A stretch of 60,269 nt of DNA, from contig JAFYWG010000039.1 in assembly GCA_017558115.1 (NCBI GenBank), positions 1-60,269 of the forward strand. The letters run 5' to 3'. The notes below the pieces were generated by a model that had not been told where the DNA came from, did no database searches, and was given only the letters and a program-made list of their open reading frames with translations. Shown here piece after piece: positions 11,188 through 31,188 of this stretch (position 1 is the first letter of the stretch; every line of letters starts with the position of its first letter). The stretch comes from Alistipes sp. (GTDB taxonomy: Bacteria > Bacteroidota > Bacteroidia > Bacteroidales > Rikenellaceae). The translations under genes were made by a program, and so were the position numbers.

Positions 11188-11742
11188 TTAGAAGTATCGT
11201 GTTAAGCTTACGCCTATATTCATTAGTCCATATTGATTAAAGAAAGGTGTTTTCCTAGTGTCACCTAGATCTAAAAGAACTACACCGATAGAGGGTGTGT
11301 AATCAAATGATATTCCTATTGGAACCTCTTTAAATCTTAATCCCACCTTTGTCAATAGAGTAGAACCAATATAGGCTATTCCTGAATTTCCACCGGCATT
11401 ACTACCCATTCCTAAATCGAATGACCACTCTGTCTTACCGCCTGGACCATCCCAGATTACAATTTTTCGTCCATATAGAATTGTGAATTCTGCTGTAATG
11501 AAGTTGATGGATGCTAAACCAATTTCTTGTAAATTTTTGTTAACAAAAGCATACATTGATGGACCAAAGCGACCTTCTATATATGATGCATTATCGATGT
11601 AGTATTGTCCGACAACATTAAATCCAGCATCAACACGGAAACCCCAAGCCGATTTATATTCATAATCGGTTACTTCATCATTTTGACCAAATGCTACCAC
11701 GGTCGTCATTAGTGCAAAGACTAAGAATAAAAGTCTCTTCAT
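11188..11742 (-). CDS. Small outer-membrane beta-barrel protein, unknown role
   Basis: About 184 aa, with a signal peptide (MKRLLFLVFALMTTVVAFG). Alternating aromatic and glycine-rich strands follow (DLGMGSNAGGNSGIAYIG, VGLRFKEVPIGISFDYTP) and the protein ends in aromatic RYF. A terminal Phe is typical of outer-membrane barrels. The size fits an 8-strand barrel. The reading frame opens two codons earlier at 11748, but MKRLL makes the better signal start. Composition is clearly more AT-rich than the flanking housekeeping genes. It lies directly downstream of the structured RNA at 11790-12033 on the same strand, about 50 nt away, so that RNA could be its leader. Confidence 0.65.
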   Translation of the reverse strand: MKRLLFLVFALMTTVVAFGQNDEVTDYEYKSAWGFRVDAGFNVVGQYYIDNASYIEGRFGPSMYAFVNKNLQEIGLASINFITAEFTILYGRKIVIWDGPGGKTEWSFDLGMGSNAGGNSGIAYIGSTLLTKVGLRFKEVPIGISFDYTPSIGVVLLDLGDTRKTPFFNQYGLMNIGVSLTRYF

Positions 11743-11789
11743 AATCATGTGAGTTGCAACACCAGACCCCAGAAATGTTAATTATATAA

Positions 11790-12033
11790 AATAAGAAAGT
11801 GTGGAGTCTATTAGTCTATCTGAATGGAGGTTCTGGAATACCTTTGACCAAATAAACAATACCCCACACCCGTATCGAGCATGAGGCAAGAAATGTCCCA
11901 GACTATACAATACGAAGTGACGAGTGTGTTGCTCTCCTTGGTCAATTGAAATTTTCCAGATTTCCATTCAAGGGATAAAAGCTAATACACTTTCTTCAAA
12001 AAATATGTAGTATCAAAAACATAGTGCTTTTGA
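11790..12033 (-). ncRNA. Rod-shaped structured RNA, copy 1
   Basis: Six nested helices are seen on the minus strand (plus coordinates): 11987-11994/11795-11802 (GAAAGTGT), 11982-11986/11810-11814, 11963-11969/11822-11828 (GAATGGA), 11954-11960/11832-11838 (TCTGGAA), 11938-11945/11844-11851 (TTGACCAA) and 11921-11928/11865-11872 (CACACTCG, one G-U). A separate 5' hairpin, TATCAAAA/TTTTGATA, comes first. The RNA at 29662-29915 has the same plan with different bases in most helices. The innermost loop region keeps GTGTGGGGTAT. It has its own promoter and may be a free RNA or the leader of the beta-barrel gene. Ends are estimated. Confidence 0.72.
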
Positions 12034-12038
12034 TATTA

Positions 12039-12070
12039 CAAAGATAGTAGAATTTTCTTAAAATACCAAA
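12039..12070 (-). promoter_or_regulatory. Promoter of rod RNA copy 1
   Basis: Minus strand: TTTG (12067-12070), 20 nt, TATCTTTG (12039-12046). This is a full match to the Bacteroidota consensus. Confidence 0.82.
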
Positions 12071-12159: not shown

Positions 12160-12197
12160 ATTGGGACTGCCCTTTGTGGACAGTCCCAATTTTTTTG
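12160..12197 (+). repeat. Terminator-like hairpin, copy 2 of cassette-1 boundary repeat
   Basis: The same 31-bp hairpin as 11113-11143, here followed by seven T on the plus strand, so it is a proper intrinsic terminator in that direction although no plus-strand gene precedes it closely. The two copies bracket rod RNA 1 and the beta-barrel gene. Confidence 0.8.
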
Positions 12198-12223
12198 CAT
12201 CATTACCTAATTAGATAACCTAT

Positions 12224-12280: not shown

Positions 12281-13813
12281 TTACTTTGCGTACGATACCG
12301 AACGAGTCTCGCGGATAACGGTAATCTTCACCTGACCGGGATATGTCATCTCGTCCTGAATCTTCTTTGCTATGTCGTGTGACAATGCCTCCGACTCCTG
12401 GTCTGAGAGCTTGTCGGCACCAACGATAACGCGGAGCTCACGACCTGCCTGGATAGCATAGGTCTTAACAACGCCAGGGTATGAGAGTGCGATACCCTCC
12501 ATCTCCTTAAGACGCTTGATGTATGACTCCACAACCTCGCGGCGTGCACCGGGGCGAGCACCCGAGATGGCGTCACACACCTGGATGATAGGTGCGATGA
12601 GAGATGTCATCTCTGCCTCGTCGTGGTGAGCACCGATGGCGTTGCATACGTCGGGCTTCTCCTTGTACTTCTCGGCGAGCTTCATACCGATGATTGCGTG
12701 TGGCAATTCGGGCTCATCATCGGGCACCTTGCCGATATCGTGCAAGAGACCTGCGCGGCGTGCCGCCTTGGGGTTGAGGCCAAGCTCTGCAGCCATGATG
12801 CCTGCGAGGTTTGCAGTCTCGCGAGCGTGCTGCAAGAGGTTCTGACCATATGAAGAGCGGTACTTCATCTTACCAATAAGGCGGATAAGCTCAGGGTGTA
12901 GACCATGAATACCGAGGTCGATGGTGGTGCGCTTGCCTACCTCTACGATCTCCTCCTCGATCTGCTTCTTAACCTTTGCTACAACCTCCTCGATGCGTGC
13001 GGGGTGGATACGACCATCTGTTACGAGCTGGTGCAATGCAAGGCGTGCAATCTCGCGACGTACGGGGTCGAAGCCCGAGAGGATGATAGCCTCAGGGGTA
13101 TCGTCAACGATAATCTCGATGCCAGTTGCTGCCTCCAAAGCGCGGATGTTACGACCCTCGCGACCGATGATGCGGCCCTTTACCTCGTCCGACTCGATGT
13201 TGAACACCGTAACGGCATTCTCGATAGCGGTCTCGGTAGCCACGCGCTGGATAGATGCTACGACGATGCGCTTAGCCTCCTTTGTTGCTGAGAGCTTAGC
13301 CTCCTCGATAGTCTCTGCTACGTATGCTGCGGCCTCGGCCTTAGCCTCGTTCTTCATATTCTCAATAAGAACGTTCTTTGCCTCCTCAGAGCTCATGCCC
13401 GAGATCTGCTCGAGGCGTGAGTTCTGCTCCTTGATTACCGATGCGAGCTCCTCCTTCTTTGTCTCGAGCTCCGCGGCGCGTGTCTCAAGCTGCTCCTTAC
13501 GCTTGTCGTAGTCCGAAGCTTTCTTGTCGAGGTCGCGCTCTTTGTGCTGGAGGTTTGCCTCGAGCTGCTTAGCGCGCTGCTCGCTCTGCTGCAGTTTCTG
13601 GTTGCGCTCATTCACCTGGCGATCGTGGTCGCTCTTAAGCTGGATAAACTTCTCCTTTGCCTGCAACATCTTCTCCTTTTTTATCATTTCGCCATCTGCC
13701 TCGGCCTTTGCTACGATGGCCTTGGCGCGTGATTTAGCTATGAAGTAGGCCGCGAAGCCTCCTACCAAAGCACCAACCACCAAACCGACGACTGTCAAAA
13801 TTACTGGTTCCAT
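12281..13813 (-). CDS. rny: Ribonuclease Y
   Basis: A 510-aa endoribonuclease. Domains in order: one N-terminal membrane helix (residues about 4-26), a long coiled coil (about 30-190), a KH RNA-binding domain ([17 protein letters not shown]), and an HD phosphohydrolase domain with the metal-binding HDIGK. It initiates mRNA turnover at the inner membrane. Length matches the family. It lies downstream of zapA and the probable 6S RNA. Only about 37 nt separate the RNA terminator from its ATG, so its promoter would overlap that terminator's T tract. Confidence 0.96.
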
Positions 13814-13850: not shown

Positions 13851-13894
13851 AAAAAAAAATCCGCACGGACTCCTTAACTTGTTTGACGAATCCG
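13851..13894 (-). terminator. Terminator of the zapA-rny intergenic RNA
   Basis: Minus strand: stem CGGATTC/GAGTCCG (one wobble) with a 15-nt loop, then TGCGGA and nine T, followed by G. The T tract plus G could serve as a -33 element for rny, but no good -7 box is seen. Confidence 0.75.
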
Positions 13895-14108
13895 CAGATA
13901 AGTCATAGGTGGGGCTCCGAGGCACGCAACAGTCCACTGGTGGTATTAGCACACCCCGAAGGGTTGAGGCCTTGTTTTGTAACTTCACTCGAGAGTTGTC
14001 CCAATGTTATATAAATTGTACAGTTCGCAAAGCTTTTAAGGAATCTATGCGGGATAGATTTTTCTATATGAAAGAACGCTGACGCACTTATGGGGTGCAT
14101 CGCCCATA
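13851..14108 (-). ncRNA. ssrS: Probable 6S RNA between zapA and rny
   Basis: About 258 nt without an ORF run from a TAATATTTG-like -7 box (about 14116-14124) to a strong terminator. Several local hairpins are visible, including ATAGA-AAAA-TCTAT and ACCC-TTCG-GGGT, with the stretch GCGTGCCTCGGAGCCCC near the 3' end. A zapA-adjacent position is the classic place of 6S RNA in many bacteria. I could not draw a convincing complete 6S rod by hand, so the name rests mainly on synteny, size and terminator. Confidence 0.5.
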
Positions 14109-14184: not shown

Positions 14185-14475
14185 TTAACCCTTCACGTAC
14201 TTACGTATGCGCTCCTCGATGGCGTGTAGCTCCTCTACATCCTCATCGCCAAGTGCCGAGCTGTGCTCGGTGGTTAGTGCGAGTATTGAGTATCGCAGTG
14301 CGGCCATGGCAATACGATCCTGCATGTCGAATTTCGGAATCTTTGAGTACTCCGTAATCTTCTCATTGAGGCGCTTTGCCGCTACGCGATATAGCTCTTC
14401 ATTTGCTGCGTCGATGGTCATCGGGTAGCTCTTGCCAGCTATTGATATGTTAACCTTTATCTTACCTTCTGCCAT
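14185..14475 (-). CDS. zapA: Cell division protein ZapA
   Basis: A 96-aa protein with the ZapA pattern: an N-terminal beta segment (KIKVNISIAGKSYPMTI), then NEELYRVAAKRLNEKI, and a C-terminal helix for dimerisation. ZapA crosslinks FtsZ protofilaments and stabilises the Z-ring. It follows the coiled-coil gene by 5 bp, so both share the promoter at 14825-14856. The structured intergenic RNA lies directly downstream. Confidence 0.9.
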   Translation of the reverse strand: MAEGKIKVNISIAGKSYPMTIDAANEELYRVAAKRLNEKITEYSKIPKFDMQDRIAMAALRYSILALTTEHSSALGDEDVEELHAIEERIRKYVKG

Positions 14476-29594: not shown

Positions 29595-29625
29595 GACTAT
29601 TTTTATGCGATACCCCGATAAAGTG

Positions 29626-29656
29626 TTGTTCAAATGAAAAACATTTTGTATCTTTG
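29626..29656 (+). promoter_or_regulatory. Promoter of rod RNA copy 2
   Basis: TTG (29626-29628), 20 nt, TATCTTTG (29649-29656). Same arrangement as the promoter of rod RNA copy 1. Confidence 0.78.
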
Positions 29657-29661
29657 TTATG

Positions 29662-29915
29662 CTTAACGCCGCTATAGGCGTGGAGTAGAACATTTTTTTG
29701 AAAGTGTTTTCGTATTGTCCGAAGTAGGAAATGTGGTAGTTTCAAGACTGAGGGACGGCGAACAACACTCTTCCTTGTATAGCTATGTGGCGGTATACGT
29801 TCTGCATACCTACCTCATACTATCCAAGTGTGGGGTATCGCATCGTTTATTGTTGTTACAGGTCTTTCCACAGCCTCCTACTTGATAAACGAAAGTCAGC
29901 TCCACACTTTCTTTG
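29662..29915 (+). ncRNA. Rod-shaped structured RNA, copy 2
   Basis: After a 5' hairpin ACGCC/GGCGT come nested helices: 29700-29707/29904-29911 (GAAAGTGT), 29708-29712/29890-29894 (TTTCG), 29722-29729/29876-29883 (AAGTAGGA), 29732-29736/29868-29872 (TGTGG), 29744-29749/29861-29866 (AAGACT, one G-U), 29765-29769/29827-29831 (ACACT) and an apical GGTAT/ATACC. Layout equals that of the RNA at 11790-12033, but most helix bases differ while pairing is kept. GTGTGGGGTAT near the inner loop and GAAAGTGT at the base are identical. The nuclease gene begins about 55 nt downstream. Ends are estimated. Confidence 0.72.
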
Positions 29916-29967
29916 TATATATACTAACCATCCATCTCGGAGCTCGGTGGTCTTAATATGAAAAAGC

Positions 29968-31188
29968 ATGAATGAACCTCAGGTAGAATCATATACATAT
30001 GAGGGCATTGTTAATGATATTATTGCATTCAATAATGATCAGATAGTGCAACGCTTGCGTAATATATATTACAATCAAAATCTTCCGGAAATATTTGCAG
30101 TAAGCCGACGAGAGTTGAGTCATAGTTCGTTTTTAGCATGGTTGTTTACTAGTTCTGCGAATCATGGATTTGGTGTATTGCCTTTAAATCTTTTGCTAGA
30201 GTTATTCATCCTTAAAGGACGCCATAAAGGATTACTATCAGACAAATTGACAAATGCTATAATCACTCGCAGTTTTCATATTTCAGAATGTTCTGCCGTT
30301 ACCGAGGAGAGTGTAACTACAAAGAAGGCAAAAGGAAGAGCGGATATAGTACTGACATGTAATGTGGATTTCCCCGACCAATCTCTGGATAAACTGAAAA
30401 TCGTGATTGAAAATAAGGTTTATTCTGACGAGCATAGTAGTCAAACGCAGACATATTTCGAATACTATGAAAGCATTAGGTCGAAAAACGAGTCGGTTTT
30501 GTATGTGTTCCTCACACCACCTACTGTTACTTCTGGCGCTGAATGTGAACAGTTTGTTCATATTACATATCAGGATCTACTAGATCATATTTTTGAGCCG
30601 TTACGTCGCCAACCAGATATAAACCAACGAACAAAATTCATATTAGACGAGTATATAAATAGTCTTAGTATTCCGTCACATACAGTTGAGGAAAATAGTA
30701 GCACACATATTCAAACATCAATATTGGCAATAGGTATGGAAGAAAAAGAACTCCTACAATCATTTTGGGAAAAACATAACAGATTGATAATAGCTGCGTT
30801 GAATGCAATGTCTGGGGACAATGATGAGGCGAAAAAATTAATTAATAACTTGAGTAAGAAAGATTTTACTAAATACAAGGTCAATGGAGAAGGTCCCTAT
30901 TATAAGAGAAGAATGGTTGAAGCAGTGGTGAATCTTTATTTAAAAGAACACCAAGACTCTAGTTTAGATGACCTAAAAAGTGTATTCCCAGATGAACTCC
31001 AGGGTGGCTCGTTAGGTGTTATTCGTACCACTGAAGACACGATAAAAGATAAAACAAGATATTTTGAATCTATTCATCCAAAGACCAACGTTAAATTCTT
31101 TATTTCTAATCAATGGGGACCTAACATTGAGAACTTTGTTAATCATGTAAATACATTAAATATTGGTATTCATATAGAAAAGTGCTAA
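29968..31188 (+). CDS. PD-(D/E)XK nuclease family protein
   Basis: A 406-aa protein. SRRELSHSSFLAWLF precedes a PD-(D/E)XK core: GRADIVL (Asp) then KIVIENKVYSDEHSSQTQTYFEYY, which supplies the E-x-K and the downstream Gln typical of this family (PDDEXK_4-like). The C-terminal 200 residues are not recognised. Such proteins are scattered in Bacteroidota accessory regions and some serve in DNA defence; no methylase or partner is seen here. The upstream structured RNA may be its leader. The gene is AT-rich. Confidence 0.78.
   Translation: MNEPQVESYTYEGIVNDIIAFNNDQIVQRLRNIYYNQNLPEIFAVSRRELSHSSFLAWLFTSSANHGFGVLPLNLLLELFILKGRHKGLLSDKLTNAIITRSFHISECSAVTEESVTTKKAKGRADIVLTCNVDFPDQSLDKLKIVIENKVYSDEHSSQTQTYFEYYESIRSKNESVLYVFLTPPTVTSGAECEQFVHITYQDLLDHIFEPLRRQPDINQRTKFILDEYINSLSIPSHTVEENSSTHIQTSILAIGMEEKELLQSFWEKHNRLIIAALNAMSGDNDEAKKLINNLSKKDFTKYKVNGEGPYYKRRMVEAVVNLYLKEHQDSSLDDLKSVFPDELQGGSLGVIRTTEDTIKDKTRYFESIHPKTNVKFFISNQWGPNIENFVNHVNTLNIGIHIEKC

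What the first reader, a model, noticed from the sequence alone, without database searches (positions are those of the whole stretch)
11790..12033. Two diverged copies of an unassigned rod-shaped RNA in one window
The minus strand at 11790-12033 and the plus strand at 29662-29915 fold into the same plan. Each has a short 5' hairpin, a T-rich link, a basal GAAAGTGT/ACACTTTC helix and five further nested helices. Four helices have different bases in the two copies but keep pairing (ATTAG/CTAAT vs TTTCG/CGAAA; GAATGGA vs AAGTAGGA; TCTGGAA vs TGTGG; TTGACCAA vs AAGACT). The loop-proximal GTGTGGGGTAT and the 5' TTTTTTGAA link are conserved. Both start after a TATCTTTG promoter. Such covariation is strong evidence for a selected RNA. 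A rod with an inner bubble recalls 6S RNA, yet a better 6S candidate lies at 13851-14108.
Basis: partly seen in the sequence, partly recalled or inferred. Interest (0 to 1): 0.85.

Follow-up and report, generated by a model that had tools for sequence, protein, structure and literature searches.

The report
New Bacteroidota switch-like leader RNA family
The two look-alike RNAs belong to a large, apparently undescribed family of folded RNA leaders that sit directly in front of many unrelated, often cell-surface, genes in Bacteroidota and probably decide whether those genes are transcribed and translated.

Summary
Both window copies (A, minus strand 11758-12046; E, plus strand 29605-29951) belong to a multicopy family: 7 copies here, 1-28 in 22 of 24 same-genus relatives, 96 of 295 genomes of the order, 31 of 296 sampled from the phylum. 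No Rfam 15 family reaches its cut-off on it. It is not 6S-like and probably not free-standing: 116 of 122 distinct sequences have an ATG reading frame behind them, median 55 nt away, and a hairpin before that ATG pairs back to the RNA. Covariation is very strong, also in distant copies not used for model building, and supports helices that cannot all coexist, including a terminator-like hairpin with a U-tract. Best reading: a cis-acting two-state attenuator leader. Unexpectedly, 42 of 128 distinct copies (downstream control 1 of 129), E included, carry just upstream of their promoter box a stretch complementary, copy by copy, to two RNA segments flanking the apical hairpin. Either a longer transcript masks the switch or the RNA recognises its own promoter. 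The signal is unknown; no transcript data were available.

The parts
12039..12046 (-). copy A: TATCTTTG promoter (-7) box
   Evidence: TAnnTTTG upstream of 69 of 69 close copies and of 101 of 116 in the wider set; that this is the Bacteroidota promoter box is recalled
12012..12034 (-). copy A: variable 5' hairpin
   Evidence: fold
11987..11994 (-). copy A: strand S1 (GAAAGTGT)
11936..11971 (-). copy A: region X (5' strands of helices P3, K, P5; local hairpin P4)
   Evidence: swap tests
11922..11931 (-). copy A: strand S2 (CAACACACTC)
11851..11869 (-). copy A: strand S3, GTGTGGGGTATTGTTTATT
11820..11852 (-). copy A: region Y (3' strands of P5, K, P3; local hairpin P6)
   Evidence: swap tests
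11795..11819 (-). copy A: strand S4, followed by a U-rich tract
11758..11779 (-). copy A: hairpin P9; loop GGGGTCT complementary to AGACTCC in S4
   Evidence: sequence; family-wide swap z -9.3
11188..11748 (-). copy A: following gene, 186 aa, signal-peptide-like start, no Pfam match at E 0.01
29605..29631 (+). copy E: promoter-upstream arm complementary to S3 (29605-29616) and S2 (29622-29631)
   Evidence: score 22
29649..29656 (+). copy E: TATCTTTG promoter box
29660..29687 (+). copy E: 5' hairpin
   Evidence: fold
29700..29707 (+). copy E: strand S1
29720..29749 (+). copy E: region X
29763..29770 (+). copy E: strand S2 (CAACACTC)
29828..29851 (+). copy E: strand S3, diverged to GTGTGGGGTATCGCATCGTTTATT
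29852..29884 (+). copy E: region Y
29884..29911 (+). copy E: strand S4
29927..29951 (+). copy E: hairpin P9; loop GGAGCT complementary to AGCTCC in S4
   Evidence: sequence
29968..31188 (+). copy E: following gene, PD-(D/E)XK nuclease superfamily (PF14281), 406 aa

Best explanation
The RNA is a cis-acting 5' leader of a new family, present across Bacteroidota, that works as a two-state attenuator. Shown from sequence: it starts behind a promoter-like box, has a folded core, ends at a U-rich tract, and is usually followed about 55 nt later by a start codon. Shown by covariation: region X (near the 5' end) pairs with region Y (near the 3' end) through P3, K and P5, while X and Y also carry small local hairpins P4 and P6, so K can be read as a loop-loop contact. 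Four strands around this core can pair in exclusive ways: S2 with S3, S3 with S4, S1/P2a with P2b/S2, and, in the window's relatives, S1/P2a with S4. Inferred: S3:S4 plus the U-tract is the terminator (OFF), S2:S3 forms first and is the antiterminator (ON), and hairpin P9, whose loop pairs with the same S4 strand just before the start codon, passes the state of S4 on to translation. The signal that tips the balance (metabolite, protein, or choice of transcript start) is not known. Targets are diverse, many of them secreted or surface proteins.
For: Leader position: 116 of 122 distinct sequences with an ATG frame of at least 50 aa within 320 nt, median 55 nt, 66 of 116 at 45-59 nt (121 of 127 entries before removing repeats). 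P9:S4 swap z -9.3 (69 copies) with upstream control +0.2; z -10.9 in 48 order-level copies. S3:S4: 149 of 149 distinct scorable sequences complementary at the variable Y/R position (119 T:A, 30 C:G), whereas S1:S4 had 1 mispair and 3 wobbles in 147. In 21 phylum-level copies not used for any model: hairpin I z -6.4, S3:S4 -6.4, P2b/S2:S3 -5.3, crossed controls -0.4 and -1.0. U-tract after S4 in 60 of 69 (control 0 of 69), 38 of 48 and 11 of 18 in wider sets (controls 0). P3/K/P5 covariation. The two competing helices have similar energies (-20.4 against -18.4 kcal/mol in those 21 copies).
Against: No transcript, 3'-end or probing data. Promoter and terminator are consensus readings. The nested minimum-energy fold prefers the rod over forced S3:S4 by 17.1 kcal/mol in A and 4.1 in E, though that program cannot add the X:Y pseudoknot to the S3:S4 state. 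In the close set S2:S3 itself gets no support with a short S3 window (z +2.9) and S3:S4 only z -3.1, because S3 hardly varies there. E's U-tract is interrupted. The target genes share no pathway that I can see, unlike most riboswitch regulons. P9 support is weak in the most distant set (z -2.1), where several copies lie over 180 nt before the first frame or have none. Swap tests do not remove relatedness.
Confidence: 0.65

Rival explanations
1. Transcript-start switch. A second promoter just upstream makes a longer RNA that begins with the arm complementary to S3 and S2; that arm captures S3, prevents S3:S4 and lets transcription through, while the short RNA terminates. This is a possible trigger for the attenuator rather than a full alternative.
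For: 42 of 128 distinct copies carry the arm, 41 of them at -68 to -101; downstream control 1 of 129, shuffles 14 of 1290. Compensatory changes in copies with altered S3 or S2, such as L178 (11+12 nt) and L161:17641 (8+10). A TTTG box lies 4-28 nt before the arm in 24 of 39 non-redundant cases, shuffled mean 6.1, maximum 13 in 500; 10 of 63 at the same place in copies without the arm.
Against: Only 4 of 42 have a full TAnnTTTG box at -240 to -105. The nested fold of the long RNA pairs arm and S3 in only 5 of 42, E included. Copy A and about two thirds of copies score below the arm threshold; no signal in the distant set (0 of 8; z 0.2 and 0.0 on 22). With other copies' upstream stretches 14.7% reach the score, since S3 is shared by many.
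Confidence: 0.4
2. The leader RNA recognises its own promoter DNA: S2 and S3, on either side of the apical hairpin, pair with the non-template strand just upstream of the promoter box, alone as an R-loop or with an unidentified protein, and autoregulate transcription.
For: Same complementarity statistics. The arm keeps a close distance to the promoter box (end of the S2 complement 12-22 nt before it in 39 of 42). With the arm defined by a simpler pattern, it also occurs behind divergent upstream genes (9 of 30 with an assigned neighbour).
Against: No protein partner was looked for. A TTTG box in front of the arm offers a simpler RNA-RNA reading. Present in a minority of copies.
Confidence: 0.25
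3. Free-standing regulatory RNA (6S-like or a multicopy sRNA such as FopS) that merely lies next to genes.
For: Own promoter box and U-tract would release a ~240-nt RNA; multicopy; rod-shaped minimum-energy fold.
Against: Start codon at a nearly fixed distance and P9 pairing back to the RNA; no Rfam 6S match.
Confidence: 0.15
4. Leader-peptide attenuator: a ribosome on a short reading frame at S1 decides which helix forms.
For: In the close set 95 of 100 copies have ATG or GTG at S1; the frames run 3 to 32 codons, most often 4-5, and usually begin MKV or VKV.
Against: Frame length and sequence vary; in the wider set only 22 of 60 have any start codon there, while the helices persist.
Confidence: 0.08

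Closest known systems
Transcription-attenuating leaders and riboswitches (general kind)
   Same: 5' leader position, covarying pseudoknotted core, exclusive antiterminator/terminator-like helices, U-tract, downstream start codon.
   Different: No Rfam family reaches its cut-off; up to 28 copies per genome in front of unrelated genes; promoter-upstream arm complementary to the RNA in a third of copies; no known ligand.
FopS/GibS multicopy sRNAs of Bacteroides (PMC11697453, passages seen)
   Same: Multicopy paralogous RNAs in Bacteroidales with canonical promoters; FopS act on susC mRNAs, and some distant copies here precede SusC-like genes (my reading of N-termini).
   Different: FopS act in trans by seed pairing near start codons (from the passages); this RNA is large, intricately folded and sits in cis. 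FopS sequences were not compared.
6S RNA
   Same: Rod-shaped minimum-energy fold of about 200 nt with internal loops.
   Different: No match to a 6S model; multicopy; followed by genes; a separate conserved 6S-like segment exists at 13851-14108.
DUF805 RNA (RF03081, RF02914)
   Same: Rfam calls it cis-regulatory; one lies directly behind this RNA in L196.
   Different: A separate 68-nt element; this RNA itself does not match it.
Flavo-1 RNA (mentioned in PMC9723704, passages seen)
   Same: Widespread in part of the same phylum.
   Different: No Flavo-1 match at E up to 0.1 in 20 homologue loci.

Membership tests
6S RNA | match to an Rfam 6S covariance model | tested here: not met
   no 6S hit even at E up to 5 on either copy
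6S RNA | independent RNA, not placed as leader of a gene | tested here: not met
   116 of 122 distinct sequences followed by an ATG frame, median 55 nt; co-transcription not shown
any Rfam 15 family | score at gathering cut-off | tested here: not met
   window; 20 homologue loci at E up to 0.1, no match on the RNA itself; only chance-level matches far under cut-off on E
transcription attenuator / riboswitch-like leader | located in the 5' leader of a gene | tested here: met
   (by position only)
transcription attenuator / riboswitch-like leader | mutually exclusive helices, one followed by a U-tract | tested here: met
riboswitch | binds a small-molecule ligand | not testable with these tools
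   needs binding assays
leader-peptide attenuator | conserved short reading frame overlapping the switch | tested here: not met
   present in 95 of 100 close copies but in 22 of 60 wider ones, and variable
FopS sRNA | FopS/GibS seed sequence and trans action on susC | not tested
   sequences not at hand; paper passages only
RNA-guided promoter recognition | RNA segments complementary to a DNA target in a copy-specific way | tested here: met
   but the partner may be RNA instead of DNA, and it is absent in the distant set
RNA-guided promoter recognition | RNA-binding effector protein | not tested
   no co-occurrence search was made

The most novel reading that the evidence does not exclude
A phylum-wide class of leader RNA in which many members carry a built-in bipartite guide (S2 and S3 around the apical hairpin) for their own promoter: each such guide co-evolves with the DNA just upstream of that copy's promoter, so the nascent leader, alone or with an unknown protein, recognises the gene it came from and sets its transcription.
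Probability: 0.22. Interest if true: 0.95.

Novelty: new variant of a known kind. Interest (0 to 1): 0.8.

Why it matters
A structured RNA found in about a third of sampled Bacteroidales genomes (96 of 295) appears to have no name: it is not in Rfam 15, and none of the listings of nine paper searches showed a paper that I recognised as describing it; supplementary tables of large surveys were not open to me. It would be a shared switch over accessory surface, adhesion and restriction-like genes, a way for gut Bacteroidales to tune variable traits, and I know of no leader RNA with such copy-specific complementarity to the stretch upstream of its own promoter.

Tried and rejected
6S membership: no Rfam hit. 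Rod as the only fold: its basal helix has no swap support in distant copies (z -0.6).

Mobile cassette with a clean empty site: of 29 relatives' rny loci, none has copy A's RNA behind rny at a convincing score (one hit of 18 bits in L235 on the opposite strand); two of the 29 hold only about 200 and 66 nt behind rny. In the 8 relatives whose downstream stretch I compared, only chance-level similarity was found, so no insertion boundary could be drawn. Left open.

Read-through detector (arm needed only behind a co-directional gene): not supported, 21 of 30 against 28 of 51 co-directional, p 0.24.

Long-transcript masking by nested folding: pairs in only 5 of 42; not decisive because pseudoknots are not modelled.

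Leader peptide: not general. Plasmid search: none. Phage search: two unannotated faecal phage records. A degenerate pattern over viral contigs gave none. A first regular expression for S1 was wrong and was replaced.

Genome counts are lower bounds because only 8-9 or 62 candidates per genome were scored; each tally includes the window's own genome. Rows dropped: two reverse-strand hits and one truncated copy before the 70-sequence set; five artefact hits before the 127; 5 repeats among those 127, 6 among the 162 and 1 among the 129, removed (near-identical copies remain); copies without a recognisable S2 or S3 or with under 140 nt upstream before the 129, which left only 8 of the distant set. 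One of the 23 rows (L130) is a locus used to build R2; one search repeats the tests without it. Pfam was run on 109 proteins: the 112 with a start within 200 nt less three repeats; one search listed only 25 of 65 families.

Full report
What was checked. The plus strand of A also folds better than its shuffles (z -4.3). Rfam 15 has no family for either at gathering thresholds; at E up to 5 only chance-level matches far below cut-off appear.

The family. A DNA search of the window's own genome found further copies. An exact scan for a 19-base core hit at least 117 stretches of GTDB genomes and stopped at its limit; the 80 listed rows bear names of Alistipes, Rikenellaceae and other Bacteroidales or Bacteroidia. 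A covariance model R1 from 57 sequences found 6 copies in this genome at E under 1e-10, matched 27 of 41 genomes including 22 of 24 same-genus relatives, with up to 28 copies each, 96 of 295 genomes of the order in 62 of 178 genera, and 20 of 296 genomes sampled across the phylum. A broader model R2 raised this to 31 of 296 genomes and 17 of 140 genera, three genomes outside the class, and to 7 copies here plus one hit at E 0.06. These are lower bounds because few candidates per genome were scored; the own genome is counted in each tally.

Structure. In 70 sequences under 80% identical, own-partner pairing was compared with partners swapped among sequences: P3 z -29.4, P5 -25.4, K -18.3, P1b -9.4, P8 -8.8, P1 -7.7, P2 -6.9, P6 -6.6, P4 -4.9, S3:S4 -3.1; no support for S2:S3 with a short window (+2.9) and little for P1c (-1.3). 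In 23 distant copies, 22 of them outside the training sets, 93.5% of cells pair, 34 of 40 pairs have double changes, and the covariation score is 0.610 against 0.183 shuffled and at most 0.102 with slid partners (93.7% without the training row). That alignment was fitted to the model, which favours it. K joins the loops of the small hairpins P4 and P6, so P3, P4, P5 and P6 can be read as a four-way junction with a loop-loop contact (inference).

Two states. Strands S1-S4 flank this core. At the variable position of the GTGT/GCGT motif, S3 and S4 are complementary in 149 of 149 distinct scorable sequences; S1 and S4 in 146 of 147 if the 3 wobbles count (155 of 155 and 152 of 153 with repeats). 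In 21 distant copies used for no model, hairpin I (S1/P2a with P2b/S2) has z -6.4, S3:S4 -6.4, P2b/S2:S3 -5.3, but S1/P2a:S4 only -0.6; crossed controls -0.4 and -1.0. In 49 order-level copies, most of which built R2, these are -9.9, -9.9, -10.3 and -4.2, with crossed controls at +1.5 and +0.9. S3 cannot pair with S2 and S4 at once, so at least two arrangements are under selection. A U-rich tract follows S4 in 60 of 69 copies, control 0 of 69. I read S3:S4 as the terminator and S2:S3 as the antiterminator; that assignment is inferred. Nested energy folding prefers the rod over forced S3:S4 by 17.1 kcal/mol in A and 4.1 in E, without the X:Y pseudoknot.

Leader position. Of 122 distinct sequences, 116 have an ATG frame on the same strand, median 55 nt behind S4 and 66 of 116 at 45-59 nt. 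The loop of hairpin P9, between S4 and the ATG, is complementary to the 5' half of S4: z -9.3 (69 copies), -10.9 (48 copies), -2.1 (22 distant copies), with upstream controls at +0.2, -0.9 and +0.2. A crude signal-sequence rule called 86 of 121 proteins lipoprotein- or signal/TM-like (no genome background was computed). Pfam on 109 of them shows BspA-type leucine-rich repeats in 13, BACON and DUF4988 in 5 each, Ig-like Big_2 in 3, fimbrillin and OMP barrels in 2 each, and restriction-like nucleases REase-ARP in 4 and HSDR_N in 1. E is followed by a PD-(D/E)XK nuclease-like gene and A by a protein with no Pfam match. Some distant copies precede SusC-like genes (my reading of the N-termini); others there have no frame of 50 aa within 350 nt.

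Promoter-upstream complementarity. A TAnnTTTG box lies upstream of 69 of 69 close copies and at -75 to -25 in 101 of 116 of the wider set. In 42 of 128 distinct copies a stretch upstream of S1 (41 of 42 at -68 to -101) is complementary to S3 and then, after a gap of 0-11 nt, to S2, at a summed score of 13 or more. Controls: 1 of 129 downstream, 14 of 1290 shuffles; with other copies' upstreams 14.7% reach the score because S3 is shared by many. Copy-specific changes argue for base pairing: L178 has 11+12 complementary bases to an S3 of altered sequence, E has 12+10 to its own diverged S3, and L161:17641 matches its altered S2. The S2 part alone, swapped within 28 arm-bearing copies, gives z -5.5, the S3 part z -3.5. 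Without preselection, S2 and S3 give z -5.3 and -3.5 in the close set, -3.0 and -7.5 in the order-level set, and nothing (0.2 and 0.0) in the most distant set. In 39 of 42, the arm ends 12-22 nt before the promoter box. A TTTG box precedes the arm in 24 of 39 non-redundant cases, shuffled mean 6.1, which allows a second promoter whose RNA would begin with the arm. Whether the partner is that RNA or the DNA is not settled: nested folding of the long RNA pairs arm and S3 in 5 of 42, and the arm does not depend on a co-directional upstream gene.

Literature. Fremin and Bhatt 2021 (PMC8040213, passages seen) list thousands of candidates; the passages seen do not describe this element, and supplements could not be opened. 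The Flavobacterium psychrophilum transcriptome paper (PMC9723704, passages) mentions Flavo-1 and unnamed structured leaders. FopS (PMC11697453, passages) is the nearest multicopy RNA by copy number and targets. No statement of absence from print goes beyond the listings and Rfam.

Verdict. A real, widespread, apparently unclassified RNA; best explained as a cis-acting two-state attenuator leader (0.65). What flips it is unknown; the promoter-upstream arm is the most surprising clue.

Noticed in passing
window 13851-14108, minus strand: Conserved RNA-like segment between rny (12281-13813) and the gene before it (14185-14475; that this is zapA is recalled, not tested); alignable in 10 of 10 same-genus relatives compared, with a well-conserved core and a T-rich end. 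Likely the 6S RNA, yet no Rfam 6S model matches at E up to 5.
   Followed up: partly
L196 1386-1454 minus; L152 2696-2730 plus: DUF805 RNA (RF03081) lies directly between this leader and its gene in L196; DUF805b lies behind the gene in L152, just under its gathering score. Tandem leaders are possible.
   Followed up: no
L163 6213-6415 and 6564-6764 minus; L044 5089-5308 and 5517-5711 minus: Two copies of the leader in tandem, about 150 and 210 nt apart.
   Followed up: no
L161 5559-17852: Four leader copies within about 12 kb, each in front of genes that look accessory, set between housekeeping-like genes (gene identities read from the translations).
   Followed up: partly
S1 of the close family members: 95 of 100 carry ATG or GTG at S1, giving MKV/VKV micro-frames; 22 of 60 wider copies have any start codon there.
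   Followed up: partly
MT838511.1, MT836914.1, L007: Copies in two unannotated faecal phage records and one viral contig.
   Followed up: no
window 12160-12200: Strong, roughly symmetric terminator-like hairpin between rny and copy A (sequence).
   Followed up: no
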